From Comamonas sp. lk (GTDB lineage: Bacteria > Pseudomonadota > Gammaproteobacteria > Burkholderiales > Burkholderiaceae_C), in NCBI GenBank assembly GCA_943324505.2, contig CALPLW020000005.1, positions 1 through 38,955 of the forward strand: a DNA stretch of 38,955 bases, given 5' to 3'. Position numbers and translations under genes: made by a program. Below are positions 23,769 through 38,955 of the stretch, in pieces. Under the pieces are notes generated by a model that did not search any database, was not told the origin of the DNA, and worked only from the letters and a program-made list of their open reading frames with translations. How positions within the stretch are numbered: the first letter of the stretch is position 1; each line of letters begins with the position of its first letter.

Positions 23769-25601
23769 ATGACTGACGCTTTTCAAGCGGCTGGCGATTC
23801 CTCGTCGGTCGAAGACTTTTCCATTAATTCCGAAGAGGCAAGCCCGAACCCCTTAGAGTCAACCGAGGTTCTGGAAGCTGCTCCAAACGGCTTCTTAGCG
23901 TTTGGACTGGCTCCGGAGTTGATTCGTGCAGTGCAGGATCTGGGATTTACCCAGCCGACCACCGTACAGCAAAAGACTATTCCGCTTGCTATGGAGGGTG
24001 TCGATGGGGCTCAACCGGGTACCCGCTTTGTGGACCTTATGGTCTCCAGCCAGACAGGTAGCGGCAAAACAGCTGCGTTTTTACTGCCGGTTTTGCATAC
24101 CCTATTAACGCAGCAGGTCCGAGCTGAAGCCAAGGAGCGTGCAGATTTCGACTTGGCAGTGGCTGATGCGCTGGCTAAGGGCGAGGCGCCACCAAAGCGC
24201 GGCAAACGCAAGGACCCAACCAATCCCCGTAATTTTTCAACCGTTGCCCCGGGCGCTCTCATTGTCTGTCCGACACGTGAGTTGGCGCAGCAAGTGGCGC
24301 ACGATGCCATCGATTTGGTACAGCATTGCCGTGGCTTACGCATCGCCAACATCGTGGGTGGTATGCCCTACCAATTGCAGATAGCCAAACTCCAAAACGC
24401 CAACCTCGTGGTTGCAACGCCTGGTCGGCTGCTTGACCTGCAGCGTTCCATGCAAATCAAGCTGGACCAAGTTCAGTTTCTGGTGGTTGATGAAGCCGAC
24501 CGCATGCTTGATCTCGGGTTTTCGGATGATCTGGCTGAGATCAACCAACTGACTATTCAGCGTCAGCAGACCATGATGTTCAGTGCAACGTTTGCCCCCC
24601 GTATTCAGCAGCTTGCTGCCAGGGTCATGCGGGAGCCGCAGCGGATCACGATTGACTCTCCCCAAGACAAGCACGTGAATATCAAGCAGGTCTTGTTCTG
24701 GGCCGACAATGCGCAGCACAAGCGCAAGTTGCTGGATCATTGGCTGCGCGACACCACGATCAACCAAGCCATTGTTTTCGCCAGTACCCAGATTGAATGC
24801 GACGGTTTGGCCAACGATTTGCAGCAGGATGGTTTTTCTGCGGTTGCTTTACACGGCGCGCTAAGCCAAGGCCTGCGTAACCGCCGGCTCATGGCCTTGC
24901 GGCAGGGGCAAGTGCAAATTCTGGTTGCCACCGATGTCGCTGCACGTGGCATTGACGTGCCGACCATCAGCCATGTGTTTAATTTCGGTTTGCCGATGAA
25001 GGCCGAGGATTACACGCACCGCATTGGTCGTACCGGTCGTGCAGGGCGCGACGGACTGGCCGTGACGTTTGCCGAATTCCGTGACCGTCGCAAAATTTTT
25101 GATATTGAAGCCTACAGCCGGCAGCAGTTCAAGGCCGAAGTGATTCCTGGCCTCGAGCCGCAACAGCGGTTCCCGGATGCGCGTCCTAATTCGAATTTTG
25201 GCGGACGGGACAGCCGTGGCAGCAGTGACCATCACTCGCGTGATCGCAAGTTCGGCGCGGGTCGCCCTGCTGGCTTTGGTGGTAATCGGCATGGAAGCTC
25301 AGACCGCAGCGCCAACGCCCCGCGTGATTTTGGTGCACCAGGATTCCCTGGGCAAGCTGCGGCCGGTTTTGGTCAGCGTGATGCTCGCCCGGCAGCGCCC
25401 CGCGAAGGCTTTAGCTACGAACGCAAAGGTGGATTCAACGATCGCTTCGCGGGCGACCGGGCTCCGTCGGCCGTACCGCGTGACGACTTTGGCGCGCGCA
25501 AGCCGACCTTGAGCAAGCCGATGGGCGTCAAGCCCGGGAGCGGTGGGGGGAAGGTTTTTGTGCCCAGAGATGCAAAAAAGCGTTTGACGCGCAACGCCTG
25601 A
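23769..25601 (+). CDS. DEAD-box RNA helicase, RhlE-like
   Basis: ATP-dependent RNA helicase of 610 residues (ATG 23769). Motifs in order: Q motif (GFTQPTTVQQKTIP), I (SQTGSGKTAAF), Ia (PTRELAQQ), Ib (TPGRLLD), II (DEADRMLD), III (SATF), V (ATDVAARGID) and VI (HRIGRTGRAG). Two features stand out. A lysine-rich insert of about 45 residues lies between motifs I and Ia (AEAKERADFDLAVADALAKG...). A C-terminal tail of about 150 residues is rich in Gly, Arg, Asp and Phe (for example RDSRGSSDHHSRDRKFGAGR) and is probably disordered and RNA-binding. Rather strong RNA-dependent roles in ribosome or mRNA metabolism are inferred from the family. Confidence 0.93.
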   Translation: MTDAFQAAGDSSSVEDFSINSEEASPNPLESTEVLEAAPNGFLAFGLAPELIRAVQDLGFTQPTTVQQKTIPLAMEGVDGAQPGTRFVDLMVSSQTGSGKTAAFLLPVLHTLLTQQVRAEAKERADFDLAVADALAKGEAPPKRGKRKDPTNPRNFSTVAPGALIVCPTRELAQQVAHDAIDLVQHCRGLRIANIVGGMPYQLQIAKLQNANLVVATPGRLLDLQRSMQIKLDQVQFLVVDEADRMLDLGFSDDLAEINQLTIQRQQTMMFSATFAPRIQQLAARVMREPQRITIDSPQDKHVNIKQVLFWADNAQHKRKLLDHWLRDTTINQAIVFASTQIECDGLANDLQQDGFSAVALHGALSQGLRNRRLMALRQGQVQILVATDVAARGIDVPTISHVFNFGLPMKAEDYTHRIGRTGRAGRDGLAVTFAEFRDRRKIFDIEAYSRQQFKAEVIPGLEPQQRFPDARPNSNFGGRDSRGSSDHHSRDRKFGAGRPAGFGGNRHGSSDRSANAPRDFGAPGFPGQAAAGFGQRDARPAAPREGFSYERKGGFNDRFAGDRAPSAVPRDDFGARKPTLSKPMGVKPGSGGGKVFVPRDAKKRLTRNA

Positions 25602-25659
25602 CCTTGGCTACACCAACGCCATAGAGGGTTCCGACCATCTAGTTGAAAAAGGCCCGACG

Positions 25660-26667
25660 ATGACAATGTTTGCAAGAGATTTTAAAAATCCGTTGCTGAA
25701 ACGCCGTTTTGTCTTTCTGACCCTGCCTCATTATTCGCTGATTGCGCTGTCGACTGCCGTTGAAGCGCTGCGAATGGCCAACCGTGTCACGCAAGAAGAT
25801 GTCTACCACTGGACTATTGCCAGCCTGGATGGGTCGCCACAGACGGCCAGTAGCGGCCTATGGATGTCGCCGACCCAGCCCATTGAGGCAATTGGGGAGG
25901 TAGACATCGTTTTTGTGTGCGGTGGTGTGGACGTCGAGCAGGCCGTAACATCTGATCTCCTTGCTGTTTTGCGTCGCCTGGCGCAGCACCATGTGGCCTT
26001 GGGCTCTCTTTGCACGGGCGGTTATGCGCTTGCAAAAGCTGGCTTGCTCGACAAATACAAAGCAGTTATCCATTGGGAAAACATGTCCGCGCTAAAAGAG
26101 CAGTTTCCGCGGGTGATTTTTTCGGATCAACTCTTCGCTATCGACCGGGATCGTTACACCTGTTCGGGCGGCGTCGCACCGTTGGATCTGATGCTCAACA
26201 TTATCAAAGACCAACTGGGGCGTGATATCGCCCCGATGATTTCAGAACAGTTCATTCTCGACCGAATTCGCAATGATCAGGACCGTCAGCATGTGCCGCT
26301 GCAAGCGAGGGTGGGGCTTTTTCATGAAAACCTTATCGAGGCTGCCGCCTTGATGGAAAGCAACATCGAGGAGCCTCTGTCGCTTGATGAGATTGCCGCC
26401 TTGGTCGGAGTCTCGCGCCGCCAGATCGAGCGCCTTTTCAAACGCTACGTGGGCGAGGTTCCAACCAAATACTACCTAGATATGCGGCTCCGTCGGGCCA
26501 GAACCCTGCTTTTGCAGACAGCAATGTCCATCATGGACATTGCTGTAGCCTGTGGGTTCCAGTCGCCACCGCACTTTTCCAAATGTTATCGCAATCTGTT
26601 TGGTCACACCCCTAGCGCCGAACGTCAGCTTAGCCGACGAAACACACTAAGTGGACAAAATGCCTAG
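25660..26667 (+). CDS. gbdR: GlxA/GbdR-like AraC-family transcriptional regulator
   Basis: The 335-residue protein has an N-terminal DJ-1/PfpI (GATase1-like) domain (RFVFLTLPHYSLIALSTAVEALRMANR, then FVCGGVDVEQ and GSLCTGGYALAKAGLL). A C-terminal AraC double helix-turn-helix follows, with LSLDEIAALVGVSRRQIERLFKRYVGEVPTKYYLDMRL and SIMDIAVACGFQSPPHFSKCYRNLFG. The pattern, including DRDRYTCSGGVAPLDLM, closely resembles GbdR, the glycine-betaine-responsive activator of choline and betaine catabolism in Pseudomonas (from memory). The nearby betaine genes support this reading. It is convergent with purU. AAAGG lies 7 bases before the ATG. Confidence 0.8.
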   Translation: MTMFARDFKNPLLKRRFVFLTLPHYSLIALSTAVEALRMANRVTQEDVYHWTIASLDGSPQTASSGLWMSPTQPIEAIGEVDIVFVCGGVDVEQAVTSDLLAVLRRLAQHHVALGSLCTGGYALAKAGLLDKYKAVIHWENMSALKEQFPRVIFSDQLFAIDRDRYTCSGGVAPLDLMLNIIKDQLGRDIAPMISEQFILDRIRNDQDRQHVPLQARVGLFHENLIEAAALMESNIEEPLSLDEIAALVGVSRRQIERLFKRYVGEVPTKYYLDMRLRRARTLLLQTAMSIMDIAVACGFQSPPHFSKCYRNLFGHTPSAERQLSRRNTLSGQNA

Positions 26668-26697
26668 TGCCCTTGGCGGACGTAGGCGATCAATCAG

Positions 26698-27573
26698 CTA
26701 GCGAAAGACCACCGTCTTGCTGCCATTCAAAAAGACTCGGCGCTCGATGTGAAATTTGACAGCCGATGCCAAAGCTCGGCACTCCGAATCGCGCCCGGCC
26801 GCCGCCAGTTTCTCAGGCGTAAAGGTGTGGTCGACGCGTTCGACGATCTGCTCAATGATAGGCCCTTCGTCCAGATCTGCCGTCACATAGTGGGCAGTGG
26901 CGCCCGTCAACTTAACCCCGCGGGCATGGGCCTGATGGTAGGGCTTGGCGCCTTTGAATCCTGGCAGAAAGGAGTGGTGGATATTGATCGCTCGGCCACG
27001 TAGGCTTCGGCATAGGTCGTCAGAGAGCACCTGCATGTAGCGCGCCAGCACAACCAATTCGCTGTCGGTAGCTGACACGATATCCAACAATTGTTGTTCT
27101 CGGCCTGCCTTGGTTTCGGGCGTGACGGGTAAGCAGACAAACGGGATGTTGTGCCCCTCAACCATAGGGCGCAGATCAGGATGGTTCGATACGACTGTGG
27201 TGATGTCCATCTTGAGTTCGCCTGTGCGATGGCGGTAAAGCAAATCGTTCAGACAATGGTCAAACTTGGAGACCATGATCAGGACCCGAGGTTTTTTTTG
27301 GCCGTCATGAATTGCCCACTCCATGTCTTCTCGCTCAGCAACTTCCAGGAATTCAGTTTTCAGGGCCTCGAGCACGGGTGTCTGAACCGGGTCACCGTAA
27401 AAGCTCACCCGGACAAAAAAGCGGCCTGTCAACACGTCGTCAAACTGCTGCATGTCAGTGATGTAGCATTTTCGAGAGGCCAAGAAGCCCGAAACTGCCG
27501 CCACCGTACCCATGCGACTGTCGCAGGTGGCGTTCAAAATGTAGTGGGGTTTGCCTTCGAGAGGAACATTCAT
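26698..27573 (-). CDS. purU: formyltetrahydrofolate deformylase (PurU)
   Basis: Hydrolyses 10-formyl-THF to THF and formate. The 291-residue protein has an N-terminal ACT domain (about 8-85) and a C-terminal formyltransferase-type domain with INIHHSFLPGFKGAKPYHQAHARGVKLTGATAHYVTADLDEGPIIEQ. This segment contains the conserved catalytic Asn, His and Asp. It is divergent from the corrinoid methyltransferase genes, sharing a 297-base regulatory region with them. In this context it likely releases formate from methyl-derived one-carbon units and regenerates free THF, as in the methyl-oxidising chloromethane pathway. A role in purine or glycine balance remains possible. Confidence 0.93.
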   Translation of the reverse strand: MNVPLEGKPHYILNATCDSRMGTVAAVSGFLASRKCYITDMQQFDDVLTGRFFVRVSFYGDPVQTPVLEALKTEFLEVAEREDMEWAIHDGQKKPRVLIMVSKFDHCLNDLLYRHRTGELKMDITTVVSNHPDLRPMVEGHNIPFVCLPVTPETKAGREQQLLDIVSATDSELVVLARYMQVLSDDLCRSLRGRAINIHHSFLPGFKGAKPYHQAHARGVKLTGATAHYVTADLDEGPIIEQIVERVDHTFTPEKLAAAGRDSECRALASAVKFHIERRVFLNGSKTVVFR

Positions 27574-27719
27574 GTGGTGTCAGCGCTCTGCTGGTCGGAT
27601 AAGGTCGGTGATGTGGCGTCGAGGCCTGGCTGCTTTTCACAGTTTAGGTAAAGAAAGTCGGTCGGGTTGTCTCGGCACGACGGTAGCTTGAATCGTCGCG
27701 ACTAACCCAGCTTCTGTTG

Positions 27720-27782
27720 CATGTCGCACATGAGTCATTCTCATGTCGCTGGACGATAATGGAAAGTCGCTAATCTATTAGC
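27720..27782 (+). promoter_or_regulatory. candidate activator sites and promoter of the corrinoid operon
   Basis: In the 297-base purU/corrinoid gap, CATGTCGC occurs at 27720-27727 and again at 27742-27749. The 22-base spacing is two helical turns, as expected for an AraC-type activator. A candidate -10, GATAAT (27755-27760), follows with no good -35, consistent with an activated promoter. GCTAAT-CT-ATTAGC (27769-27782) is an extra inverted repeat. A second pair, GGTCGG at 27593 and 27603 (10 bases apart), lies nearer purU. Binding by the GbdR-like protein is a hypothesis. Confidence 0.35.
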
Positions 27783-27870
27783 TGGCCTCACTGTGGGACC
27801 GTACCATTTTCTTTATTCGGAAACGTCGGCATTGCCGGGCAGTTTTACCATGACACAAGAGGAGTAGATC

Positions 27871-28575
27871 GTGGCAGAAGACTTTGATGATGATCTTGAC
27901 CTGAATACTCTGAACGACGAGGATCTGACGGAACAGGTACACGACGACCTCTACAACGGCTTGCGTAATGAGGTCATAGACGCTACAAACATTCTTTTGA
28001 AGCGCGGTTGGTCTGCTGACCGGGTGCTGAATGACGCTTTGGTGGAGGGCATGCGCATTGTCGGCGTTGACTTCCGCGATGGCATTCTGTTCGTCCCAGA
28101 AGTGCTGTTGGCTGCCAATGCCATGAAGGGTGGTATGGAAATTCTGCGCCCCCTTCTGGCGGAGACCGGTGTGGAGCCAATTGGCAAGATGGTAATCGGT
28201 ACGGTTAAGGGTGATATCCATGACATCGGCAAGAACCTCGTCGGCATGATGATGGAGGGTGCCGGGTTTGAAGTGATTGACCTGGGCATCAATAACCCCG
28301 TCGAGAAATACTTGGCTGCCCTAGAAGAGCACAAGCCAGATATTCTCGGTTTGTCAGCCTTGCTGACGACCACCATGCCCTACATGAAAGTTGTGATCGA
28401 CACCTTAAAGGAAAAAGGCCTGCGTGACGACTTCATTGTGCTGGTTGGGGGCGCCCCGCTGAACGAAGAGTTTGGGCGGGCAGTGGGTGCAGATGCTTAC
28501 TGCCGCGATGCCGGCATTGCCGTTGAAACCGCCAAGACCTTGATTGCTGCCCGGCGCGCTGCTGCTCGCGCCTGA
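27871..28575 (+). CDS. stand-alone corrinoid (B12-binding) methyl-carrier protein
   Basis: Carries a methyl group on cobalt between two methyltransferases. The 234-residue protein has an N-terminal helical capping domain (about 20-100) and a Rossmann B12 domain with GTVKGDIHDIGKNLVG: D115, H117 and G120 form the DxHxxG motif whose His is the lower cobalt ligand. GLSALLTTTMPYM and VGGAP complete the nucleotide-tail pocket. GTG start with GAGGAG 6 bases upstream. It resembles MtaC/MttC/MtgC-type proteins and the B12 module of MetH. It begins an overlapping plus-strand run ending near the window edge. The methyl donor is inferred to be glycine betaine via Bmt. Confidence 0.93.
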   Translation: MAEDFDDDLDLNTLNDEDLTEQVHDDLYNGLRNEVIDATNILLKRGWSADRVLNDALVEGMRIVGVDFRDGILFVPEVLLAANAMKGGMEILRPLLAETGVEPIGKMVIGTVKGDIHDIGKNLVGMMMEGAGFEVIDLGINNPVEKYLAALEEHKPDILGLSALLTTTMPYMKVVIDTLKEKGLRDDFIVLVGGAPLNEEFGRAVGADAYCRDAGIAVETAKTLIAARRAAARA

Positions 28576-28587
28576 GGCGATCAGGCC

Positions 28588-29196
28588 GTGCATCGCTGCT
28601 TGATCATTGCCTGCGGCGCGCTGGCCAGGGAGATCGTGGCGCTGCGCAAACTCAACGACTGGCCGTATATGGATGTGCAGTGTCTGCCCGCCGAGTTGCA
28701 CAACCGTCCGGAAAAAATTCCAGCTGCGGTCAAGGCCAAGATTCTGGCTAACCGTAAAGACTATTCGAGTATCTTTGTCGCCTATGGCGACTGTGGCACG
28801 GGTGGCTTACTGGATGCGGTGTTGCAGGAGGAGCAGGTCGAGCGAATTCCCGGTGCTCACTGCTATGAGTTTTTTGCTGGCAGCGAGGCTTTTGACGCCT
28901 TGACAGAAAAGGAACTCGGTACCTTTTACCTGACAGACTTCCTGCTGGAGCACTTCGAGCGACTGGTAGTGCGCGGCCTTGGGCTGGATCGGCACCCGTC
29001 CTTGTTGGTAACGCTATTTGGCAACTACCGCAAGTTGGTGTACCTGGCTCAGGTGCCTGATGCCGAAAGACTGAAGGCAGCCCGCGCGGCGGCCGAGAGA
29101 TTGGGTTTGACGTTTGATTACCTCGTGACTGGTTATGGCGGGCTGGAACGCAGCCTGAAGGTCGTGAATCAAGGAGTAGTGGTGTGGCGAAGCTGA
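28588..29196 (+). CDS. DUF1638 protein of unknown function
   Basis: The 202-residue protein (GTG start, 12 bases after the corrinoid gene) matches my memory of the DUF1638 pattern: LIIACGALAREI near the start, FVAYGDCGTGGLLD, HCYEFFAGSEAFD, FYLTDFLLEHFERLV and HPSLLVTLFGNYRKLVYL. Cysteines at 4, 9, 32, 69 and 92 plus several His/Asp could bind a metal or cofactor, but no known catalytic motif is seen. No signal peptide or membrane segment. It overlaps the next gene by 13 bases. The family commonly accompanies corrinoid methyltransferase genes, so a role in methyl transfer, corrinoid loading or assembly is guessed; nothing here proves it. Confidence 0.75.
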   Translation: MHRCLIIACGALAREIVALRKLNDWPYMDVQCLPAELHNRPEKIPAAVKAKILANRKDYSSIFVAYGDCGTGGLLDAVLQEEQVERIPGAHCYEFFAGSEAFDALTEKELGTFYLTDFLLEHFERLVVRGLGLDRHPSLLVTLFGNYRKLVYLAQVPDAERLKAARAAAERLGLTFDYLVTGYGGLERSLKVVNQGVVVWRS

Positions 29197-29531
29197 TTGT
29201 GATTTCGTGGCGCGATGTACCCGCCCAGGTGCTCGTCAAGTTGGGACGGGAGACTGCCAAGGTGCAGCTGTCCCATCGTTTCCAGGAGGCCGTCGACCGC
29301 GCTGCCATGCGCGCCGGCAAAGCCAGTTCTGGCGACTATCTGGCGGACTGGAAGCGCAGTGAACCGCGGCGATGTGGGGATGACATTCAAGCCGAAGCAG
29401 AGGCCGAAGCCCAGCGCATTGAGGCACGCTACTCCGACGTCGACCTGTTGCGGCTAATCCGGGCGCATGGGCTGGAGGCCCCCGTTGCTGAGTCCGGTGT
29501 TGTTCCGGATGCTGCGCCAGGGGACGCCTGA
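29184..29531 (+). CDS. small 'virulence factor' family protein in the corrinoid operon
   Basis: The 115-residue protein (GTG at 29184, AAGGAG 7 bases upstream) begins AKLIVISWRDVPAQVLVKLGRETAKVQLSHRFQEAVDRAAMRAG and has an Asp/Glu/Ala-rich helical middle. This fits the family named Virulence_fact in domain databases as I recall; the name says nothing reliable about function. It overlaps DUF1638 by 13 bases and the MetV-like gene by one base (TGATG). No cofactor motif is visible. As a conserved companion of the corrinoid and folate genes it may stabilise or assemble the complex. Confidence 0.6.
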   Translation: MAKLIVISWRDVPAQVLVKLGRETAKVQLSHRFQEAVDRAAMRAGKASSGDYLADWKRSEPRRCGDDIQAEAEAEAQRIEARYSDVDLLRLIRAHGLEAPVAESGVVPDAAPGDA

Positions 29532-30001
29532 TGTACTCGGTGCGTCGATGGTCCGTGCGCCATGCTGGCGCCATGGAGCGGTTCTACCAAGCGTTTGAGC
29601 GCGCTGTCGTGGCGCTGGATCCGTTGTGGCGCAGGATCGGCTATGAGCGCTTAGAAAAACCGGTGGCAGCCTTTGAAAAAGTCGTCAAAGGATTCTTGTT
29701 TGATTGCCAAATGTGCGGCCAGTGTGCCTTGAGCTCCACCGGCATGTCATGCTCCATGAACTGCCCCAAGAGCCTGCGCAATGGTCCGTGCGGCGGGGTG
29801 CGAGCCAACGGCAATTGTGAAGTCAAGCCCGACATGCGCTGTGTCTGGGTTGAGGCTTTTGAAGGCAGTCAGCGCATGCGTGAAGGTCAAGCAACTATTC
29901 GCGTGGTACAGATTGCAGTGGACCGCCGACTGGAAGGCCGTTCGTCCTGGCTCAAGGTGGCGCGTGACAAGGCTGTACTTAAAACGGAGGCCGCACGATG
30001 A
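29531..30001 (+). CDS. MetV-like cysteine-rich methylene-THF reductase partner
   Basis: The 156-residue protein has eight clustered cysteines (59, 62, 65, 74, 78, 87, 96, 104) in CQMCGQCALSSTG, CSMNCPKSLRNGPCGG and NCEVKPDMRC. This is the pattern of the MTHFR C-terminal/MetV domain, which binds an iron-sulfur cluster (zinc is also possible). In acetogens MetV forms a complex with MetF. Its frame ends with an ATGA overlap into metF, supporting a 1:1 complex. The positively charged ends suggest RNA or flavoprotein contacts less than complex formation. The function is inferred from domain and neighbour. Confidence 0.85.
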   Translation: MYSVRRWSVRHAGAMERFYQAFERAVVALDPLWRRIGYERLEKPVAAFEKVVKGFLFDCQMCGQCALSSTGMSCSMNCPKSLRNGPCGGVRANGNCEVKPDMRCVWVEAFEGSQRMREGQATIRVVQIAVDRRLEGRSSWLKVARDKAVLKTEAAR

Positions 30002-31017
30002 GGTTTGAGGACGAGCCGGTTCCCGGCTACCCACTGCCCATTCTGCCCGGACATACCTCGCCGGGCAGGCTGGAGCGTGTGTTGCGAAGTGGTGGTTTTG
30101 CGATCACGTCAGAGCTGGACCCGCCCGATTCGGCCGATCCGGAAGACGTCTACCGGCGTGCCCGTGTATTCGACGGCTATGTCGACGCGATCAATGCCAC
30201 CGATGGTAGCGGCGCCAATTGCCATATGTCCAGCTTGGCGGTCTGCGCCTTGTTGACCCGCGTCGGTTACGCCCCGGTCATGCAAATTTCCTGCCGTGAC
30301 AAGAACCGCATCGCCATTCAGGGCGATATTCTGGGTGGTGCGGCCATGGGCGTGGCAAATATGCTGTGCCTCACCGGCGATGGCGTCCAGTCTGGTGACC
30401 ATCCACAAGCTAAACCAGTATTTGATCTGGACTGCATGTCGTTGCTGGAAATTGGTCGAACATTGCGGGACGAGCACCGTTTCCAAAGCGGACGTAAAGT
30501 CACATTCGCGCCGCGCGTGTTTTTCGGCGCGGCGGCCAACCCCTTCGGACTACCTTTTGAGTGGCGCGCTCAGCGCCTAGCGAAGAAGGTCGCAGCCGGC
30601 GCTCAGTTCATCCAGACGCAGTACTGTTACGACGTTCCCCGTCTGAAAAGCTTCATGCAGATGGTGGAGGACCTCGGACTGTCCGGCAAGGTCTTTATTC
30701 TGGTCGGTGTCGGGCCTTTGCGTACCGCCAAGGCGGCCGAATGGATGCGCACCAATGTGCCAGGCATACACATTCCGGACTCGGTCATCAAACGCATGGC
30801 GGGTGCAGAAAAGCCGGCGCTGGAGGGTCGGCAAATTTGCATCGACATCATTCAAGAAGTGCGTGAGATCAAAGGCGTCTCTGGCGTTCACATCATGGCT
30901 TATCGGCAGGAAGACACAGTGCCAGAAATCGTCGACCGGTCCGGCGTACTGGCGGGGCGTGTGCCCTGGTACCCAGGCCGAGACGTCCCTCTATCAAACT
31001 TAAAGGAAACAGCATGA
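29998..31017 (+). CDS. metF: methylenetetrahydrofolate reductase (MetF)
   Basis: TIM-barrel flavoprotein that interconverts methylene-THF and methyl-THF. The 339-residue protein has ITSELDPPDSADPEDV (Glu and PP of the catalytic FExxPP-like motif), CRDKNRIAIQGDILGGAAMGVANMLCLTGD (FAD and folate region) and AAGAQFIQTQYCYD. It is longer than E. coli MetF (296). It overlaps metV-like and the methyltransferase gene by 4 bases each. In an operon for methyl-group removal it is expected to run in the oxidative direction, methyl-THF to methylene-THF, though sequence does not show direction. Confidence 0.93.
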   Translation: MRFEDEPVPGYPLPILPGHTSPGRLERVLRSGGFAITSELDPPDSADPEDVYRRARVFDGYVDAINATDGSGANCHMSSLAVCALLTRVGYAPVMQISCRDKNRIAIQGDILGGAAMGVANMLCLTGDGVQSGDHPQAKPVFDLDCMSLLEIGRTLRDEHRFQSGRKVTFAPRVFFGAAANPFGLPFEWRAQRLAKKVAAGAQFIQTQYCYDVPRLKSFMQMVEDLGLSGKVFILVGVGPLRTAKAAEWMRTNVPGIHIPDSVIKRMAGAEKPALEGRQICIDIIQEVREIKGVSGVHIMAYRQEDTVPEIVDRSGVLAGRVPWYPGRDVPLSNLKETA

Positions 31018-31928
31018 CAGACACCGTGATCAGTTCTGCGACCCGGGAGGTCGTGATTGGCTTTGACCGTCCCTTCGTCATCATCGGCGAGCGCATCAAC
31101 CCGACAGGGCGCAAAATTTTGGCCGCAGAGATGATCGCTGGTGATTACAGCCGGGTCATCGCGGATGCCCTGGCGCAGGTCGAGGCAGGTGCCCATATGC
31201 TTGACGTTAATGCCGGTATTCCCCTGGCCGATGAGCCTGCTTTACTGGCTCGTGCGATCGAGCTGGTTCAGTCGGTCACTGATGTGCCCTTGTCGATCGA
31301 CTCGTCGATCGTGGCGGCACTGGAAGCTGGGTTGGCGGTTTACAAAGGCAAGGCGCTGGTCAACTCTGTCACTGGCGAAGAGGATAGGCTTGAAACCGTG
31401 CTGCCCTTGGTCAAGAAATACGGTGCGGCAGTGGTTGCCATCTCCAACGACGAAACCGGGATCTCCCAGGACCCCGATGTGCGCTTTGCTGTGGCCAAGA
31501 AAATCGTGGAACGAGCTTCAGACTATGGCATCCCTGCCTGTGACATTGTGGTAGACCCGCTGGTGATGCCGATAGGCGCCATCAATCAGGCGGGCGTACA
31601 AGTGATGCGCTTGGTTCATCGGCTGCGCACAGAACTCAAAGTCAACACCACCTGTGGTGCATCCAACGTCAGCTTCGGCCTGCCGGAACGCAATGGCATC
31701 AACGCCGGCTTTCTGACCATGGCGATTGCCTCTGGCATGACCTCGGCCATCACGAATCCGTTGCATGCGGAAGTCGTCAAGGCCTGCATGGCCGCTGACG
31801 TCATGATGGGGCATGACCCTGACTGCATGCGCTGGATTCGCAAGTTCCGCGAGGCGCCCACCATGGGTGCTGACGGTGAAATGGGACGTGGACGCCGGGA
31901 AGGTGGCAGCAGAAGGCGCCGCGAATGA
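31014..31928 (+). CDS. methyltetrahydrofolate:corrinoid methyltransferase (pterin-binding, DHPS fold)
   Basis: Moves a methyl group between the corrinoid protein and tetrahydrofolate. The 304-residue protein has the pterin-binding TIM barrel: GERINPTGRK (25-34), HMLDVNAGIP (61-70), PLSIDSS, NSVTGEEDRL and DIVVDPLVMPIG. It is like AcsE, MtgA and the folate module of MetH. A short basic tail (RGRREGGSRRRRE) is unusual and may be an electrostatic contact. Start overlaps metF by 4 bases. A methyl acceptor from the adjacent corrinoid protein is inferred. Confidence 0.9.
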   Translation: MTDTVISSATREVVIGFDRPFVIIGERINPTGRKILAAEMIAGDYSRVIADALAQVEAGAHMLDVNAGIPLADEPALLARAIELVQSVTDVPLSIDSSIVAALEAGLAVYKGKALVNSVTGEEDRLETVLPLVKKYGAAVVAISNDETGISQDPDVRFAVAKKIVERASDYGIPACDIVVDPLVMPIGAINQAGVQVMRLVHRLRTELKVNTTCGASNVSFGLPERNGINAGFLTMAIASGMTSAITNPLHAEVVKACMAADVMMGHDPDCMRWIRKFREAPTMGADGEMGRGRREGGSRRRRE

Positions 31929-31959
31929 ACGGTTCGGCAATCGGATGGAGGGACCGGTG

Positions 31960-33990
31960 ATGAGTGTCAAGGATGCGCTGGTGGTGTTCACGCCGTCGGG
32001 TCGACGGGGTCGTTTCCCTGTGGGTACCCCGGTCTTGCAAGCCGCGCGTTCACTTGGCGTGGACATTGACTCGGTCTGCGGTGGCCGTGGCATTTGCGGC
32101 CGTTGCCAGGTCTTGGTATCAGAAGGTGAATTTGCAAAACATGGCTTGGTGTCGCGTGGTGAAAACCTGTCCCCCTTCGGTGCCGTAGAGCAGGAGTATT
32201 GCGCGGCACAGCCGCTGGACGCTGGCCGGCGTCTGTCCTGCTCCGCCCAGTTACTCGGAGATGTGGTGATCGATGTGCCGTCGAGCAGCCAGGTTCACAA
32301 ACAAGTGGTGCGCAAACAGGCTGAGGCGCATGACGTCGAGCTAGACCCCCTGATCCGCCTGCATTATGTGGAGGTGCAGCAACCCGACATGCACGACCCT
32401 TCAGGTGATTTGCGCCGTCTCGAGGACTCCCTCGAATTCGAGTGGCGCCTGACCGACCTGGCCTGTGACGTCAATGTTTTGCAGCAGCTGCAGGTCGCGT
32501 TACGCCAAGGGCAGTGGAAGGTCACTGTCGCAGTTCATGCTGGTCGCCAGATTGTGGCGGTGTGGCCTGGGTTCAAAGAGCATGTTTATGGCCTTGCGGT
32601 GGATGTTGGGTCGACCACCATCGCTGCGCATTTGTGTCACTTGGCCTCGGGTGAGGTCGTGGCTTCAGCTGGCGTCATGAACCCTCAGATCCGTTTTGGC
32701 GAAGACCTGATGAGTCGGGTCTCTTACGTCATGATGAATCCTGGCGGGGACAAGGACATGACCACAGCAGTTCGGGCTGCGCTGAACGAACTTGCCCTTG
32801 ATGTGGCCTCGCAGGCAGGAATCACGCCGCAGGACATCTTGGAGGCCACCTTCGTTGGCAACCCCATCATGCACCACCTCCTTCTGGGCATCAATCCGGT
32901 GGAGTTGGGCGGTGCCCCTTTTGCGTTGGCCACTGATCGGGCCATCACGCTGTGGGCGGTGGAGATTGATTTCCTGATACATCGCAATGCCCGGATTTAC
33001 GTGCTGCCTTGCATCGCCGGGCATGTTGGTGCCGATACTGCCGGCGTGATATTGGCTGAGCGCCCCGACCTTTCCGATAAGGTCAGCCTGCTGGTTGACG
33101 TCGGTACCAACGCCGAGATCGTCCTCGGCAACAACCAGCGCATGCTGGCCTGCTCCAGCCCGACCGGTCCGGCCTTCGAAGGTGCCCAAATCAGCTGCGG
33201 TCAACGGGCCGCTCCGGGCGCGATTGAGAGGGTCCGTATCGACCCGGTGACCCTGGAGCCAAGGTTCAAGGTGATCGGCTGTGAGCTGTGGTCCGACGAG
33301 CCGGGTTTTGATGCAGCAGTGGCGGGCTCAGGGGTGACCGGCGTGTGCGGCTCCGGCATCATCGAGGTGTTGGCAGAAATGTATCTGGCCGGCATCATTC
33401 GCCATGACGGCACCATCAGCGGCGACCTTGCCGTGCGCAATCCACGCATCCAGGCAGACGGTCGTACCTTTTCCTACGAGCTGTACCGGGCGACGGCCAG
33501 TGCACCTGCTCTCAAGGTGATGCAAAACGATGTCCGGGCCATTCAGCTCGGTAAGGCCGCTCTCTATGCCGGGGTTCGTTTGCTGATGGAACGCATGGGC
33601 ATCGACAAGGTTGATCGGATCCGCCTGGCCGGTGCCTTTGGCAGCCATATCGATGTCAAATACGCGATGGTGCTGGGCATGATCCCCGATTGCGAGCTTG
33701 AGCAGGTCAGTTCGGCCGGCAATGCAGCGGGTACAGGCGCACGGATCGCCTTGTTGGACCAACGCTCGCGACGCGAGATCGAGCAACTGGTACGCCGGGT
33801 CGAAAAAATCGAGACCGCTGTCGAACCCAGGTTCCAGGAATTTTTCGTGGAAGCCATGGCGATTCCGCATCTGACGGCCCCCTTTGAGTGCCTTCGCCGA
33901 GTGGTGACTTTGCCGGAACGCACGGTTGTCGAATCTGACAGCAGCGCACGTGGTCGGCGCGCTGCCAGGCGTACGGCCAAAGCCGACTGA
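31960..33990 (+). CDS. RamA/RACo-like corrinoid protein reactivator (2Fe-2S, ASKHA)
   Basis: Reduces oxidised Co(II) corrinoid back to active Co(I) using ATP. The 676-residue protein (ATG 31960, GGAGG 8 bases upstream) has an N-terminal ferredoxin domain with [10 protein letters not shown] and a later LSC: C40, C46, C49 and C94 fit a 2Fe-2S ligand set. A linker and an ASKHA ATPase region follow ([52 protein letters not shown]). The family is DUF4445/RACo. Earlier in-frame starts would overlap the methyltransferase gene. The 31-base gap keeps it in the same transcript. Needed because Co(I) is easily oxidised, especially with oxygen. Confidence 0.9.
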
Positions 33991-34006
33991 ACACGCGCAG
34001 CAGAGC

Positions 34007-35467
34007 ATGAGCGAATCAGTGGTTCCAAGTTTTGTTGGCGGCATGCCCTTGCAGGGTGGTGGCGAACGCTTTGAGACCTTTAACCCGGCGACCGGTCAAG
34101 CACTGGCCTCGGTTTGGGATGCGACTGCGGCAGACGTTGAGACGGCAGTAGCCGGCGCCCAGCGCGGCTTTGAGCAGTGGTCTGCACTCACAGGCACGGA
34201 GCGCGGCCGCATCCTGCGCCGCGCAGCGGATTTGCTGCGCCTGCGCAATCGCGAACTGGCTGAACTGGAGGTTCGTGATTGCGGCAAGCCGATCCAGGAG
34301 GCCTTGGTGGTCGATGTTCAAAGCGGTGCCGATTGCCTTGAATTTTTCGCCGGTGCCGCAGCCACCCTGGCCGGCGCGCAGTACCCCTTGAAAAACGCAT
34401 TTGCCTACACCCGGCGTGAGCCGCTCGGGGTTTGTGTCGGTATTGGGGCATGGAACTACCCCCTGCAAATTGCCTGCTGGAAATCAGCCCCGGCGCTGGC
34501 AGCCGGCAACGCCATGATCTTCAAGCCGTCCGAACTCACGCCGATGACGGCTGTGAAACTGGCCGAGATCTACCTCGAGGCTGGGGTTCCACCTGGCGTT
34601 TTCAATGTCTTGCAGGGCCGTGGTCACACGGGGGCCCTGTTGGCCGCCCATCCGGGGGTGGCGAAGGTGTCGGTCACGGGCTCAGTGCCAACTGGCAAGC
34701 AGGTGATGCAGACCGCCTCGGGCACACTCAAGCGCGTCACCATGGAGCTTGGTGGCAAATCACCGCTGATCGTGTTTGACGATGCTGATCTGGAGCAGGC
34801 AGTGGCCGCCGCCATGATGGGTAATTTTTACACTCAAGGCGAGGTCTGCACCAATTGCAGCCGGGTCTTTGTCCAGCGGGGCTTGGCTGAGCGGTTTTTG
34901 GCCAGGCTCAAAGAGCGCACCGCCTTGCTCCGGGTAGGCGATCCAATGGACGAGCTGACCGAGGTGGGGGCCCTGATTTCCAACGCCCATGCGGAGAAGG
35001 TCATGGACTATATTACCAGCGGCCAGGCGGAAGGCGCCACGCTCAGCTTTGGGGGACAGCGTCTGGATATACCCGGATGCGCGGGTGGCAATTTTGTCGC
35101 TCCGACCATTTTTTCAGATTGTCATGACGAGATGCGCATTGTGCGTGAGGAAATTTTTGGCCCGGTTTTGTCTATGCTGGTGTTCGACGACGAAGATGAA
35201 GTCATCGCCCGCGCCAACAACACGCGGTTCGGCTTGGCGGCCGGGGTGTTCACCAGCGACATCGCCCGGGCGCACCGTGTCGTGGCTCGCCTGAAGGCTG
35301 GTATTTGCTGGATCAACAATTACAACATCACGCCGATAGAGATGCCATTTGGTGGTGCAGCCGAGTCTGGCATTGGCCATGAAAACAGCATGGTGGCAAT
35401 GGATCACTACACCCAATTGAAAACAGTCTATGTGGAGTTGGGTCAGGTAGCGTGTAGCTACCGTTGA
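34007..35467 (+). CDS. betB: betaine aldehyde dehydrogenase
   Basis: NAD(P)-dependent oxidation of betaine aldehyde to glycine betaine. The 486-residue protein has the aldehyde dehydrogenase catalytic Glu in [10 protein letters not shown] (about 247), the nucleophile Cys in [10 protein letters not shown] (281), the nucleotide motif [12 protein letters not shown], and the C-terminal [24 protein letters not shown], which strongly resembles BetB. Length is within the usual 485-495. A longer frame from 33926 overlaps the reactivator gene and is not used. It starts 16 bases after the reactivator stop, so it may share that transcript, and betA follows 17 bases later. Confidence 0.95.
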
Positions 35468-35484
35468 ACGGCTGATTCACGTTG

Positions 35485-37146
35485 ATGACAACCTTCGACT
35501 ACATCATTGTCGGCGCCGGCTCGGCGGGTTGCGTGCTGGCCAATCGGCTCAGCGAGGACGGTGCAGCCACCGTACTTCTGTTGGAGGCGGGTGCGCTGGA
35601 CCACAGCATTTTTATTCACATGCCCTCGGCCTTGTCTTACCCGATGGCGAACGAGAAGTACACCTGGTTGTACGAGTCCGAACCCGAGCCCTTCATGAAT
35701 GGCCGTCGGATCCACTGCCCGCGGGGTCGTGTGATCGGCGGTTCTTCATCCATCAATGGCATGGTCTACATCCGTGGGCACGCCCTTGACTACGATGCTT
35801 GGGCGAATAGTGCGGGCTTGGAAGACTGGTCCTACGCCCATTGCCTGCCCTATTTCCGCAAGGCCGAGACCCGGGCTCAGGGCGGTGACGCCTACCGCGG
35901 CGATGCGGGCCCGTTGCATGTGAGTACGGGTGCCTGCCACAATCCGCTTTATGGCGCTTTTATGGATGCCGGCAAGCAAGCGGGCTATCCCTATACCGGT
36001 GACATGAATGGCTACCAACAAGAAGGGCTGGGGCCGATGGACATGACGGTTCACAAGGGCCGGCGCTGGAGTACGGCAATGGCCTATTTGCGCCCCGCCT
36101 GGAAACGCAAAAATCTGACAGTGCAAATGCGCAGCCTGGTGACCCGGGTGGTGTTCGAGGGAGCGGCATCGCGGCGGGCGGTTGGCGTTGAAGTGATTTA
36201 CAAAGGCCAAGTGCAGCAACTGCGGGCCACCAAAGAGGTGATATTGGCCGGAGGTGCCATCAATTCGCCGCAGTTGCTCAAATTGTCAGGGATCGGCCAA
36301 CCCCAGGAATTGCAACCGCTGGGCATTGCACTGACGGCGCCTCTAGCCGGGGTGGGGGAGAACCTGCAGGATCATCTGGAGACCTATGTGCAGTTCGAGT
36401 GCACCCAGCCGATCACCTTGTTTTCTGCACTCAACCCGCTCAACAAACTCAAGATTGGTTTGGAGTGGTTGTTGTTCAGCTCTGGTCTTGGTGCCACCAA
36501 CCATTTTGAGTCGGGTGGTTTCATTCGCAGCGAAGCTGGTGTGCGGCACCCCGACCTCCAGTATCATTTTTTACCGATGGCGGTACGTTATGACGGCAAG
36601 TCGCCGGCCACTTGTCACGGTTTTCAGGCCCATGTCGGCCCGATGCGGCCGACCAGTCGGGGCCATGTTCGCTTGCGCGACGCCAAGGCAAGCACTGCGC
36701 CCAGCATTTTGTTCAATTACATGAGCACCGAGCAGGATCGCAAGGAAATGCGGGCTGCCGTGCGGCTAACGCGTGAAATTTTTCAGCAAACGGCCTTTGA
36801 CGCTTACCGTGGCGCCGAGTTGTCGCCCGGCATCCGGGTGCAAAGCGATGACGATATCGATGCGCACATCCGGGCCAATGCCGAGACCGCCTACCACCCT
36901 TCAGGAACCTGCAGAATGGGTACTGACGACATGGCGGTTACCGATGGCCAAGGGCGTGTCCATGGCGTTGAGCGCCTGCGCGTGGTCGACGCATCCCTGA
37001 TGCCGAGGGTCGTTAGCGGCAACCTCAACGCCCCCACCATCATGATGGCTGAGAAACTGTCCGACGCGATCCGTGGCCGCGCACCGATGCCGACGGCGGT
37101 CGTGCCCGTGTTCGAGCATCCCAATTATCTGGCTGCCCAACGCTGA
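35485..37146 (+). CDS. betA: choline dehydrogenase (GMC flavoprotein)
   Basis: Oxidises choline to betaine aldehyde, passing electrons to the membrane chain. The 553-residue protein has the GMC FAD motif DYIIVGAGSAGCVLANRLSED, the second motif GGAINSPQLLKLSGIG, GRVIGGSSSINGMVYIRG, and the C-terminal catalytic segments YHPSGTCRMG and SGNLNAPTIMMAEKLSD. TTG at 35482 precedes the ATG at 35485 in frame; the ATG is chosen. Together with betB it converts choline to glycine betaine. The absence of betI or a choline transporter in the window is notable, though they may lie outside it. Confidence 0.95.
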   Translation: MTTFDYIIVGAGSAGCVLANRLSEDGAATVLLLEAGALDHSIFIHMPSALSYPMANEKYTWLYESEPEPFMNGRRIHCPRGRVIGGSSSINGMVYIRGHALDYDAWANSAGLEDWSYAHCLPYFRKAETRAQGGDAYRGDAGPLHVSTGACHNPLYGAFMDAGKQAGYPYTGDMNGYQQEGLGPMDMTVHKGRRWSTAMAYLRPAWKRKNLTVQMRSLVTRVVFEGAASRRAVGVEVIYKGQVQQLRATKEVILAGGAINSPQLLKLSGIGQPQELQPLGIALTAPLAGVGENLQDHLETYVQFECTQPITLFSALNPLNKLKIGLEWLLFSSGLGATNHFESGGFIRSEAGVRHPDLQYHFLPMAVRYDGKSPATCHGFQAHVGPMRPTSRGHVRLRDAKASTAPSILFNYMSTEQDRKEMRAAVRLTREIFQQTAFDAYRGAELSPGIRVQSDDDIDAHIRANAETAYHPSGTCRMGTDDMAVTDGQGRVHGVERLRVVDASLMPRVVSGNLNAPTIMMAEKLSDAIRGRAPMPTAVVPVFEHPNYLAAQR

Positions 37147-37157
37147 AAGGCTCTGTC

Positions 37158-38189
37158 ATGACCGCCATTCACTCGGACCCCTCTCGCCAAGCGATCGAGC
37201 TACTCCTTGCTGGTTGGCCGCTGGCAGCGCGATCCCGTTTGGCGGCATTGATCGAGAGGCATGCGCACCAGGGCGCTTTTGCCATATTCGACGCAGACAA
37301 CACCAGCTACCAGCATGACCTGCTGGGTGCCTTGCTGCCCTTCATGGAAAACAAGGGCATCTTGACCCGGGACACCATGCAACCGTCTCTGGCCTTAATC
37401 CCTTTTCAAGACCTTCCAGGTCGTCGCGAGACCTTGCATGCTTACTACCAGCGCCTGTGCGAGCTGGACGATCAGATCTCTTACCCCTGGGCTTCCCAGA
37501 TTTTTTCTGGGTTTACCTTAGGTGAGCTGAAAATTGAGCTCGATGGGCTCTTGTCTGGCACACAGCCCATTCCGGTCCAGTCGTGGGTTAATGGCGAGCT
37601 TCAAGACGCATCAGTACAGCGGCCCCGCGTGCTACCCGGACAGCAAGCTTTGTACCAGGCTTTGATGCAGCATGGCATTGAGGTGTTCGTGGTCAGCGCT
37701 GCCAGCGAAGAACTGGTGCGCATGGTGCTGGCAGATCCGCGCTATGGTTATGGTGTCAAGCCCGAAAATGTCATCGGGGTGTCCCTGCTGCTGAAGGACC
37801 GGCAGACCGGTCAATTGACAACGGCCCGGAAACAAATCAGGGACGGCTGCTATCAGCCTCTTGACTTGCTGGGTCATGAGTTGACACCGACCCTGTGGGC
37901 TCCTTTGCCCTGGTATGAAGGCAAGCAGGCCGCCATTCACACTTATGTGCACCGTTGGAAGCGACCGATTTTGGTGGCCGGAGATACACCGGCCAGCGAC
38001 GGGCCGATGTTGTTCCGCAGCGCCCATGTGGAACAGGGCGCATTGCGGCTTTTCGTGTCACGAACAGAGCGCCATCTTGAAACCATGGCGACATTGCGTG
38101 ACGACCATGCCGCAGAGCAATTGGCGCACGGCCTGAGCGTGACCGCCCACGACAACTGGCTCGTGGTCCAGCCGCATGAGATCGGGTAA
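37158..38189 (+). CDS. HAD-family phosphatase, phosphorylcholine phosphatase-like
   Basis: The 343-residue protein has haloacid dehalogenase motifs: FDADNTSY (motif I, D45, D47, T49), VVSAASEE (motif II, S180), lysine in EGKQAAI (K256) and VAGDTPASDGPML (motif IV, G275 to D281). This layout recalls Pseudomonas PchP, whose motif IV I remember as GDTPDSD; here one Asp is Ala. No N-terminal signal peptide is visible, so it should be cytosolic, unlike periplasmic PchP. It lies 11 bases after betA and would feed choline from phosphorylcholine into the pathway. Activity is inferred; phosphoserine or other phosphatase functions remain possible. Confidence 0.7.
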   Translation: MTAIHSDPSRQAIELLLAGWPLAARSRLAALIERHAHQGAFAIFDADNTSYQHDLLGALLPFMENKGILTRDTMQPSLALIPFQDLPGRRETLHAYYQRLCELDDQISYPWASQIFSGFTLGELKIELDGLLSGTQPIPVQSWVNGELQDASVQRPRVLPGQQALYQALMQHGIEVFVVSAASEELVRMVLADPRYGYGVKPENVIGVSLLLKDRQTGQLTTARKQIRDGCYQPLDLLGHELTPTLWAPLPWYEGKQAAIHTYVHRWKRPILVAGDTPASDGPMLFRSAHVEQGALRLFVSRTERHLETMATLRDDHAAEQLAHGLSVTAHDNWLVVQPHEIG

Positions 38190-38233
38190 AGTCGCTACGC
38201 TGGGCCATTGGCCCTGTCTCCTACCGAATTCCC

Positions 38234-38955
38234 ATGACGATTGCGCACATGACCGAACCCTCCAATAACCGGTTTTCCAGCCTGTTGGCCTCCCGCCCCT
38301 GGCTGCTGGCAGATGGCGCCACAGGCAGTAACCTGTTTGACGTGGGCCTGATGTCCGGCGATGCCCCCGAGCTTTGGAACATCGATCACCCTGACCGCAT
38401 CAAGGCCTTGCACCAAGGCTTTGTTGAGGCCGGTGCCGACATTATTCTCACCAACAGCTTTGGCGGCACCACCTACCGCCTGAAGCTGCACAACGCTCAA
38501 GCCCGGGTGGCAGAGATCAATCTAGCGGCTGCCCGCCTGGCAAGACAAGTCGCTGATGCCAGTGGTCGCGTGGTGGCGGTGGCCGGCAGCATGGGCCCTA
38601 CTGGCGAAATCATGGAGCCCATCGGCCTGTTGAGCTTCGAGTTGGCCAAAGAGGCCTTCGCCGAACAAGCCAGAAGTCTGGCCGAAGGTGGGGCGGACGT
38701 CTTGTGGCTGGAAACCATGTCCTCCAAAGAGGAGGTCGAGGCGGCCGTGGCTGGGGCGGCCACCGTGGGCCTGCCCATTGTGTGCACCCTGAGTTTCGAC
38801 ACCAATGGTCGCACCATGATGGGTATTTCGCCCAGCGACTTTGCCGGGTTAGAGAAAACCTTCACGCCTCGCCTGGCCGCCTGCGGCACCAATTGCGGGA
38901 CGGGCGCGTCTGAGTTGGTGGCCTGCATCCATAACCTGGCCGAGGCCATGGGACC
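38234..38955 (+). CDS. bmt: betaine/homocysteine S-methyltransferase (Bmt), 3' end cut by window edge
   Basis: The frame (about 240 codons visible) starts MTIAHMTEPSNNRFSSLLAS, then LLADGATGSNLFDVGLMSGDAPELWN, ILTNSFGGTTYRLKLHNA, AVAGSMGPTGEIMEPIG and LAACGTNCGTGASELV. This is the homocysteine S-methyltransferase fold (PF02574), and NCGTG holds the first of the zinc-binding cysteines; the CC pair near the end would lie beyond the window. An alternative start is M6 at 38249. No clear ribosome binding site. It is 44 bases after the phosphatase and on the same strand. Acceptor could be homocysteine, or the corrinoid protein encoded upstream; the sequence does not decide. Confidence 0.88.
   Translation, partial: MTIAHMTEPSNNRFSSLLASRPWLLADGATGSNLFDVGLMSGDAPELWNIDHPDRIKALHQGFVEAGADIILTNSFGGTTYRLKLHNAQARVAEINLAAARLARQVADASGRVVAVAGSMGPTGEIMEPIGLLSFELAKEAFAEQARSLAEGGADVLWLETMSSKEEVEAAVAGAATVGLPIVCTLSFDTNGRTMMGISPSDFAGLEKTFTPRLAACGTNCGTGASELVACIHNLAEAMG

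What the first reader, a model, noticed from the sequence alone, without database searches (positions are those of the whole stretch)
25660..38955. Coherent choline/betaine demethylation and methyl-oxidation module with a corrinoid relay
One regulator (GbdR-like), choline and betaine aldehyde oxidation (BetA, BetB), a phosphorylcholine-phosphatase-like enzyme, Bmt, a corrinoid carrier, a folate:corrinoid methyltransferase, a reactivator, MetV/MetF and PurU lie together. Seen: gene order and overlaps. Known: similar corrinoid sets oxidise methyl groups in methylotrophs and acetogens. Inference: the module turns betaine methyl groups into folate one-carbon units and formate in an apparently aerobic betaproteobacterium, rather than simply making methionine.
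Basis: partly seen in the sequence, partly recalled or inferred. Interest (0 to 1): 0.85.

Follow-up and report, generated by a model that had tools for sequence, protein, structure and literature searches.

The report
Betaine demethylation and methionine operon
A bacterium of the beta group carries, in one probable operon, the vitamin-B12 methyl-transfer machinery recently described in marine bacteria and rhizobia that can strip methyl groups from betaine and also make methionine; it is a new lineage of a known system, with a likely control site found in front of it.

Summary
Observation confirmed: regulator, PurU, corrinoid protein, DUF1638, PF13769, MetV, MetF, folate:corrinoid methyltransferase, RamA/RACo, BetB, BetA, phosphorylcholine phosphatase and "Bmt" lie together at 25660-38955; Bmt is cut by the contig end. 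Interpretation partly supported. The set is the MtgCDE + RamA + DUF1638 system published for Ruegeria pomeroyi (PNAS 2025), which both demethylates glycine betaine and makes methionine. "Bmt" is the MtgE type, with Gly at the place of BHMT's betaine-binding Tyr77, although one paper reports betaine activity of a homologue in vitro. The likely entry enzyme, MtgB (PF06253), lies outside the window beside L-serine ammonia-lyase. No MetH was found in the 87%-complete genome, so "rather than simply making methionine" is probably a false choice. Added here: in Comamonadaceae-like relatives betA (25 of 26 loci) and mtgE (24 of 26) join the cluster; 32 of 32 mtgC upstreams hold a 21-bp-period direct repeat (27742-27775) like published GbdR/CdhR sites; 19 of 27 such genomes lack the MetH reactivation domain against 4 of 194 RACo-free members of the window's family, though two changes on a tree suffice. 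Function untested. New member of a known kind.

The parts
25660..26667 (+). GbdR-like AraC/GlxA regulator
   Evidence: PF12833+PF01965; NF052371 GbdR 410.8 bits, below its cut-off 480; 43% to a GlxA-type regulator near the S. meliloti locus
26698..27573 (-). PurU, formyltetrahydrofolate deformylase
   Evidence: TIGR00655 313.9/285.95
27742..27775 (+). direct repeat GTCGC-N16-GTCGC (period 21), probable GbdR-type operator upstream of mtgC
   Evidence: pattern in 32 of 32 Comamonadaceae-like upstreams, 0.08 expected in shuffles; only strict hit in the window; same core and period as the published CdhR/GbdR-type site
27871..28575 (+). MtgC, corrinoid-binding protein
   Evidence: PF02607+PF02310; nearest solved 1y80 E 5e-53; 76% to S. 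meliloti MtgC
28588..29196 (+). DUF1638 protein (inferred corrinoid reactivation helper)
   Evidence: PF07796 E 5.7e-29; model pLDDT 88.2, no PDB fold match at E<=0.001
29184..29531 (+). PF13769 'Virulence_fact' small protein, function unknown, conserved module member
   Evidence: E 1.2e-23; model pLDDT 88.9, no PDB fold match at E<=0.001
29531..30001 (+). MetV (PF12225)
   Evidence: E 7.3e-26
29998..31017 (+). MetF2, methylenetetrahydrofolate reductase
   Evidence: PF02219 E 3.4e-32; 68% to S. meliloti MetF of the mtg locus
31014..31928 (+). MtgD, methyl-THF:corrinoid methyltransferase
   Evidence: PF00809; NF005719 366.8/259; 2yck E 5.6e-43
31960..33990 (+). RamA/RACo corrinoid reductive activase (2Fe-2S + ASKHA)
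   Evidence: PF14574, PF17651, PF17650, PF00111; 3zyy E 6.4e-92. Start taken inside the longer ORF 31813
34007..35467 (+). BetB, betaine aldehyde dehydrogenase
   Evidence: NF009725 774.8/593; internal ATG chosen as start
35482..37146 (+). BetA, choline dehydrogenase
   Evidence: TIGR01810 804/732.1
37158..38189 (+). PchP, phosphorylcholine phosphatase
   Evidence: 4as2 E 1.3e-115 over residues 17-342
38234..38955 (+). MtgE, annotated as Bmt; homocysteine-binding module, cut by the contig end
   Evidence: PF02574; PRK07534 332.3 bits on a fragment, cut-off 338; Gly at the BHMT Tyr77 place

Best explanation
This is the MtgBCDE-type cobalamin methyltransferase in a Comamonadaceae-like bacterium, arranged as one probable choline/betaine operon. 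Phosphorylcholine is dephosphorylated (PchP) and choline oxidised to betaine (BetA, BetB). MtgB, encoded elsewhere, moves one methyl group of betaine onto the cobalamin of MtgC, leaving dimethylglycine. MtgD passes it to tetrahydrofolate. MetF2/MetV oxidise methyl-THF to methylene-THF, and formyl-THF made from it is cleaved by PurU to formate. MtgD run backwards plus MtgE, on the same MtgC, makes methionine from homocysteine. RamA (probably with DUF1638) re-reduces cobalamin. The GbdR-like regulator, bound at a 21-bp-period direct repeat upstream of mtgC, switches the operon on. Shown here: gene content, order, the repeat, PF06253 genes in the genome, no MetH found. Inferred from homologues: every reaction and direction, the operon and its regulation.
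For: Gene families and solved-structure matches. S. meliloti Ak57 pSymB carries a gene annotated trimethylamine methyltransferase family (69% to the window genome's C59 PF06253 protein over 249 aa), corrinoid protein, DUF1638, PF13769, MetV, MetF, MtgD, ASKHA protein and bmt in one region (48-76% identity to the window's MtgC, DUF1638, PF13769, MetV, MetF, MtgD, RamA and MtgE). Azoarcus KH32C has regulator-PurU-MtgC-DUF1638-PF13769-MetV-MetF-MtgD-ASKHA beside betaine ABC transporter genes. Genetics of homologues: PMC12478193, PMC5764234. MtgB: two PF06253 genes in the own genome; orthologues of the C59 one lie in the cluster in 15 of 31 non-Comamonadaceae loci, and its neighbour is L-serine ammonia-lyase, induced on betaine in R. 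pomeroyi. PF06253 in 50 of 50 module genomes tested (50 of 80 loci submitted). No MetH: PF02965 0; PF02574 only this gene and its C330 remainder. GbcB over cut-off in 0 of 28 (own plus 27 Comamonadaceae-like) but in 3 of 3 other genomes submitted. Operator.
Against: No function was tested. The genome is 86.7% complete, 5.1% contaminated, in 390 contigs, so absences are weak. MtgB is not linked to the operon here and its upstream region lacks the operator. The C59 MtgB is cut (299 aa), and its best solved match is only a 'putative trimethylamine methyltransferase' (4yyc); PF06253 substrates vary, so betaine is inferred. P. inhibens Bmt, an MtgE homologue, made methionine from betaine in vitro at 200 uM enzyme (PMC12366255). 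The own genome also has a MesD-like protein, so the module need not be the only methionine synthase. Of the 23 non-Comamonadaceae module genomes 19 keep PF02965, so the module does not in general replace MetH. PurU is next to the module in only 16 of 24 Comamonadaceae-like and 9 of 24 other loci, and PchP in 9 of 26 and 0 of 23. The 'formyl transferase' of the S. meliloti locus has no BLASTP match to PurU at 1e-5.
Confidence: 0.8

Rival explanations
1. Mainly a split methionine synthase: MtgC, MtgD, MtgE and RamA make methionine from methyl-THF; closeness to the choline genes reflects shared one-carbon metabolism and no betaine methyl passes through the corrinoid protein.
For: P. inhibens genetics (PMC5764234); no MetH found in the own genome; 19 of 27 Comamonadaceae-like module genomes lack PF02965, though 25 of 27 and all of these 19 have MetK.
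Against: The own genome and all 50 tested have PF06253 methyltransferases, in 15 of 31 non-Comamonadaceae loci within the cluster; the dual role is shown in R. pomeroyi; choline genes share the locus; 27 of 50 module genomes keep PF02965.
Confidence: 0.12
2. One reading: Bmt takes methyl directly from betaine to homocysteine, and the corrinoid set handles other methyl traffic.
For: NCBIfam names the family betaine--homocysteine S-methyltransferase (332.3 of 338 bits on a fragment); P. inhibens Bmt acts on betaine in vitro (PMC12366255); S. meliloti bmt work as retold in PMC12366255 and PMC12478193; BHMT Phe76, also placed in the betaine site, is kept.
Against: Gly at the place of BHMT Tyr77 in the window protein and S. 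meliloti Bmt and in 27 of 27 MtgE frames of related loci, by motif; closest solved chains are methionine synthases (5.4e-32, BHMT 2.5e-10); the in vitro test used enzyme at the donor's concentration; PMC12478193 notes that the S. meliloti bmt mutant uses betaine when fed methionine.
Confidence: 0.1
3. Betaine is demethylated by a GbcAB-type oxygenase in this organism and the Mtg set serves other quaternary amines.
For: Weak GbcB-like reductases exist in the own genome (best 103.5 bits); several PF06253 copies per genome suggest other substrates; Rhodoferax lacus (L017) has a GbcB-like protein of 424.8 bits, near the cut-off.
Against: Cut-off is 500 bits and 0 of 28 (own plus 27 Comamonadaceae-like) reach it; GbcA itself was not searched.
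Confidence: 0.06

Closest known systems
MtgBCDE of Ruegeria pomeroyi DSS-3 (PMC12478193; parts 1-4 of 6 of the text read, plus a word search of the main text)
   Same: MtgC, MtgD, MtgE, RamA, DUF1638, MetF2, PF06253 genes in the genome, no MetH found
   Different: By its locus tags the R. pomeroyi genes are scattered; here mtgCD, ramA, metVF, purU, betBA, pchP and mtgE share one locus and mtgB is apart. The main text does not hold the words Comamonadaceae, Burkholderiales, Betaproteobacteria, freshwater, lake or GbdR
S. meliloti Ak57 pSymB mtg/bmt region
   Same: MtgB, MtgC, DUF1638, PF13769, MetV, MetF, MtgD, ASKHA, bmt, and a GlxA-type regulator some 7 kb downstream; 48-76% identity for the eight proteins compared besides MtgB and the regulator
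   Different: mtgB is in the region; no betA, betB or pchP listed in the stretches read; bmt is about 7.7 kb from mtgC with mtgB and five other genes between; its formyl transferase has no BLASTP match to PurU
Split methionine synthase of Phaeobacter inhibens (PMC5764234; passages and one section read)
   Same: Three-part MetH plus RamA-like and DUF1638 proteins
   Different: Shown there for methionine synthesis only, in what I read
MtgABC of Desulfitobacterium hafniense and related anaerobe sets (as told in PMC12478193; other papers seen in a search listing only)
   Same: Betaine methyltransferase of PF06253, corrinoid protein, folate methyltransferase
   Different: Anaerobes; PMC12478193 reports their MtgC as phylogenetically distinct. 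Their sequences were not compared here

Membership tests
MtgBCDE betaine demethylase / methionine synthase | Free-standing corrinoid protein MtgC | tested here: met
   (76% to S. meliloti). NCBIfam's two MtgC models are not met at cut-off (205.6/370 and 171.4/310)
MtgBCDE betaine demethylase / methionine synthase | MtgD (PF00809) and MtgE (PF02574) as separate proteins | tested here: met
MtgBCDE betaine demethylase / methionine synthase | MtgB (PF06253) in the genome | tested here: met
   two genes, outside the window; one cut by a contig end; substrate not tested
MtgBCDE betaine demethylase / methionine synthase | RamA and DUF1638 reactivation proteins | tested here: met
MtgBCDE betaine demethylase / methionine synthase | Required for growth on betaine and for methionine synthesis | not testable with these tools
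   needs mutants
Betaine-homocysteine methyltransferase (BHMT) | Betaine-contacting Tyr77 | tested here: not met
   Gly77 in the window protein; BHMT 60-87 seen, role of Tyr77 from PMC3871600 passages, register. Phe76 is kept. Trp44 and Tyr160 are recalled and were not checked
Betaine-homocysteine methyltransferase (BHMT) | Zinc cysteines of the PF02574 fold | tested here: met
   TNCG in the window, GGCCG on C330; motif assignment recalled
Canonical MetH | One chain with reactivation domain PF02965 | tested here: not met
   0 in own genome, 7 of 14 controls ring
GbdR | NCBIfam equivalog cut-off | tested here: not met
   410.8 against 480
GbdR | Direct-repeat operator of GGTCGC-like half-sites at a 21-bp period | tested here: met
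   binding by this regulator not tested
Phosphorylcholine phosphatase | Near full-length homology to PchP 4as2 | tested here: met
GbcAB betaine monooxygenase | GbcB over cut-off | tested here: not met
   own best 103.5 against 500; GbcA not tested

The most novel reading that the evidence does not exclude
In these Comamonadaceae-like bacteria the betaine-demethylation operon has displaced MetH, so that the cell's only cobalamin methionine synthase sits in a GbdR-controlled choline operon: methionine synthesis would then depend on, or be tuned by, choline or betaine supply, tying phytoplankton osmolytes, vitamin B12 and methionine together. PF13769 would be an undescribed working part of the corrinoid machinery.
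Probability: 0.22. Interest if true: 0.65.

Novelty: new member of a known kind. Interest (0 to 1): 0.4.

Why it matters
It carries a pathway described mainly for marine bacteria into a large group of beta-type relatives (titles such as Baikal and Rhodoferax lacus suggest fresh water; habitat was not checked), shows it placed with choline oxidation behind a probable operator, and names a strain with the locus (Rhodoferax lacus IMCC26218, L017) in which the dual role could be tested. It also warns that genes named Bmt beside corrinoid proteins should not be read as betaine-homocysteine methyltransferases without a check, and points to PF13769 and DUF1638 as conserved parts whose confident models match no solved fold at E<=0.001.

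Tried and rejected
A cobalamin riboswitch or other Rfam RNA: none over gathering threshold in the window. Consensus sigma-70 promoters and terminators at 25400-28100: not above shuffles. MesX (PF08908), to decide whether the MesD-like protein is active: 0 of 1 and 0 of 31, but no control rang, so nothing is shown. The operator upstream of MtgB: best score on L002 is -8.1 against 25 to 53 for the mtgC sites; best on L093-L117 is 9.7, so shared control of mtgB is not supported. Fold relatives of PF13769 and DUF1638: none at E<=0.001. MetF had no solved relative by phmmer at 1e-6. The C30 PF06253 protein is only 26-32% identical to the cluster type and is probably for another substrate. The Fisher value for MetH absence (1.3e-17) is not a fair test, because the tree needs only two changes. 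A paper search for glycine betaine + corrinoid + Comamonadaceae found none; another (10 of 16 papers listed) showed nothing on point in its listing; one on PF13769 (5 of 95 listed) likewise. This does not prove absence in print.


Full report
What is there. The stretch 25660-38955 holds thirteen genes: a GbdR-like regulator, PurU (minus strand), MtgC, DUF1638, PF13769, MetV, MetF, MtgD, RamA, BetB, BetA, PchP and a PF02574 protein cut by the contig end. The last gene continues on contig C330, which begins with the window's final 134 bases and then runs into a CocE/NonD-family hydrolase on the other strand; so this gene is probably the last of the operon. That the genes form an operon is inferred from spacing and overlaps.

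What it is. The set matches the split cobalamin methyltransferase described in P. inhibens as methionine synthase (PMC5764234: passages and the RamA section read) and in R. pomeroyi as both methionine synthase and glycine betaine demethylase (PMC12478193: parts 1-4 of 6 read). There, mtgC and mtgD mutants need methionine and cannot grow on betaine even when fed it. The S. meliloti Ak57 pSymB region has most of the same parts, 48-76% identical for MtgC, DUF1638, PF13769, MetV, MetF, MtgD, RamA and MtgE; its regulator is 43% identical and its formyl transferase has no BLASTP match to PurU at 1e-5. An Azoarcus plasmid has the regulator-to-ASKHA run next to betaine transporter genes.

Relatives. 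One scan with RamA gave 242 relatives, of which the best 80 were kept, so the set leans to close kin. I of them Comamonadaceae-like, by title and RamA similarity; some titles say only beta proteobacterium or Burkholderiales, and one says Sulfuritalea. With 5.5 kb to the right of RamA, 26 of them show BetA in 25, MtgE in 24, BetB in 17 and PchP in 9; of 23 others none shows any of these. So betA and mtgE beside the corrinoid genes mark this group, PchP only part of it.

The missing entry enzyme. No PF06253 gene is in the window. The own genome has two. The C59 copy, cut at 299 aa, is 69% identical over 249 aa to the S. meliloti one; its orthologues lie in the cluster in 15 of 31 non-Comamonadaceae loci and in 0 of 49 Comamonadaceae-like loci, many of which are cut; it stands divergent from L-serine ammonia-lyase. 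Its best solved match is 4yyc, a putative trimethylamine methyltransferase (3e-118); a glycine betaine methyltransferase, 9yce, follows at 3.9e-59. All 50 module genomes tested have PF06253.

Is 'Bmt' a BHMT? By sequence it is the MtgE type: 54% identical over 225 aa to S. meliloti Bmt, for which PMC12478193 says that residues for betaine binding are lacking. BHMT residues 60-87 set against the window protein put Gly where BHMT has Tyr77 and keep Phe76; Tyr77 contacts betaine (PMC3871600, passages). By motif, 27 of 27 MtgE frames of related loci have Gly there. The register rests on the near-colinear phmmer match (49-227 to 49-223) and was not displayed as a full alignment. Against this, PMC12366255 (passages and section 8) reports methionine made from betaine or DMSP by purified P. 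inhibens Bmt, at 200 uM enzyme and 200 uM donor; the same section says that Bmt does not appear to make up for DmdA in vivo, while the paper's title speaks of DmdA-independent effects under stress.

MetH. The own genome shows no PF02965 and no second full PF02574 protein, at 86.7% completeness. In its family (unnamed by the tool; own genome included), 195 of 200 genomes have PF02965 and 6 of 200 have the RACo domain PF14574; I did not look whether the six all hold the whole module. Of the 194 without PF14574, 4 lack PF02965. Of 27 Comamonadaceae-like module genomes 19 lack it; of 23 other module genomes 4 lack it. Completeness of these 50 is not given; one marker, MetK, is found in 25 of 27 and 23 of 23, including all 19, so gaps alone hardly explain the absence. 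On a RamA tree of 26 of the 27 (L055 dropped, no full RamA in my set), the window and four outgroup rows, two changes suffice: few events. Two of the 27 (L056, L039) seem to be G075 and G168 of the family draw, by identical match positions; both are RACo-positive and not among the 194. The own genome also has a MesD-like protein (3rpd, E 2.2e-126) and YxjG-like ones (family name recalled); MesX was not found, but no control rang.

Operator. Counting words in 320 bases upstream of mtgC brought out GTCGC (GTCGCTAA in 25 of 32; 117 GTCGC sites in 31 upstreams against 26.9 in shuffles; 65 against 23.7 in 25 others). A repeat GTCG[CT]-N16-GTCG[CA] is in 32 of 32 Comamonadaceae-like upstreams, window included, 113-131 bases before the start; shuffles give 0.08. 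The pattern was tuned on these related sequences, so the shuffle figure flatters it; a better control is that the site holds 1.36 bits per column against 0.29 in the 57 columns before it and 0.81 after. It occurs once in the window (27745), and 37 of 58 hits in 541,866 bases of loci lie within 200 bases upstream of mtgC. In the other group 14 of 25 upstreams have it in either direction (no shuffle was run for these). Only afterwards did I read that the related regulator CdhR binds GGTCGC-N15-GGTCGC and that GbdR sites are very similar (PMC5806209, passages): the same core and the same 21-bp period.

GbcB, the reductase of the oxygenase route, is over its cut-off in 3 of 31 genomes, none of them Comamonadaceae-like; Rhodoferax lacus comes close with 424.8 of 500 bits.

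Judgement.

Noticed in passing
29184-29531: PF13769, named 'virulence factor', is in 24 of 24 Comamonadaceae-like and 22 of 24 other loci with enough left flank; invariant W9 R10 D11 P13 Q15 and Y52 W56 R58; confident model without fold match. The name looks wrong for a corrinoid-module protein.
   Followed up: partly
28588-29196: DUF1638 has invariant C9, C32, C69, H91 and C92 among others and a confident model with no PDB fold match at E<=0.001; a metal- or cofactor-binding role is a guess.
   Followed up: partly
G000:C62 (L005): MesD-like core methionine synthase without a detected MesX partner; no control rang for MesX.
   Followed up: partly
G000:C30:17464-18924 (L001): Second PF06253 protein, near an O-acetylhomoserine sulfhydrylase and what reads like an ABC transporter ATPase (the latter by eye); substrate unknown.
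   Followed up: no
L054: A MAG titled Klebsiella pneumoniae carries this module with RamA 76% identical to the window's; the title is probably wrong.
   Followed up: no
genomes of L072 and L083: 14 PF06253 copies each, hinting at many methylated substrates feeding one corrinoid protein.
   Followed up: no
window 19216-20316: CobD/CbiB-family protein: over the cut-off of PRK07630 (325.5/291) but far below the cobalamin-biosynthesis CbiB models.
   Followed up: no
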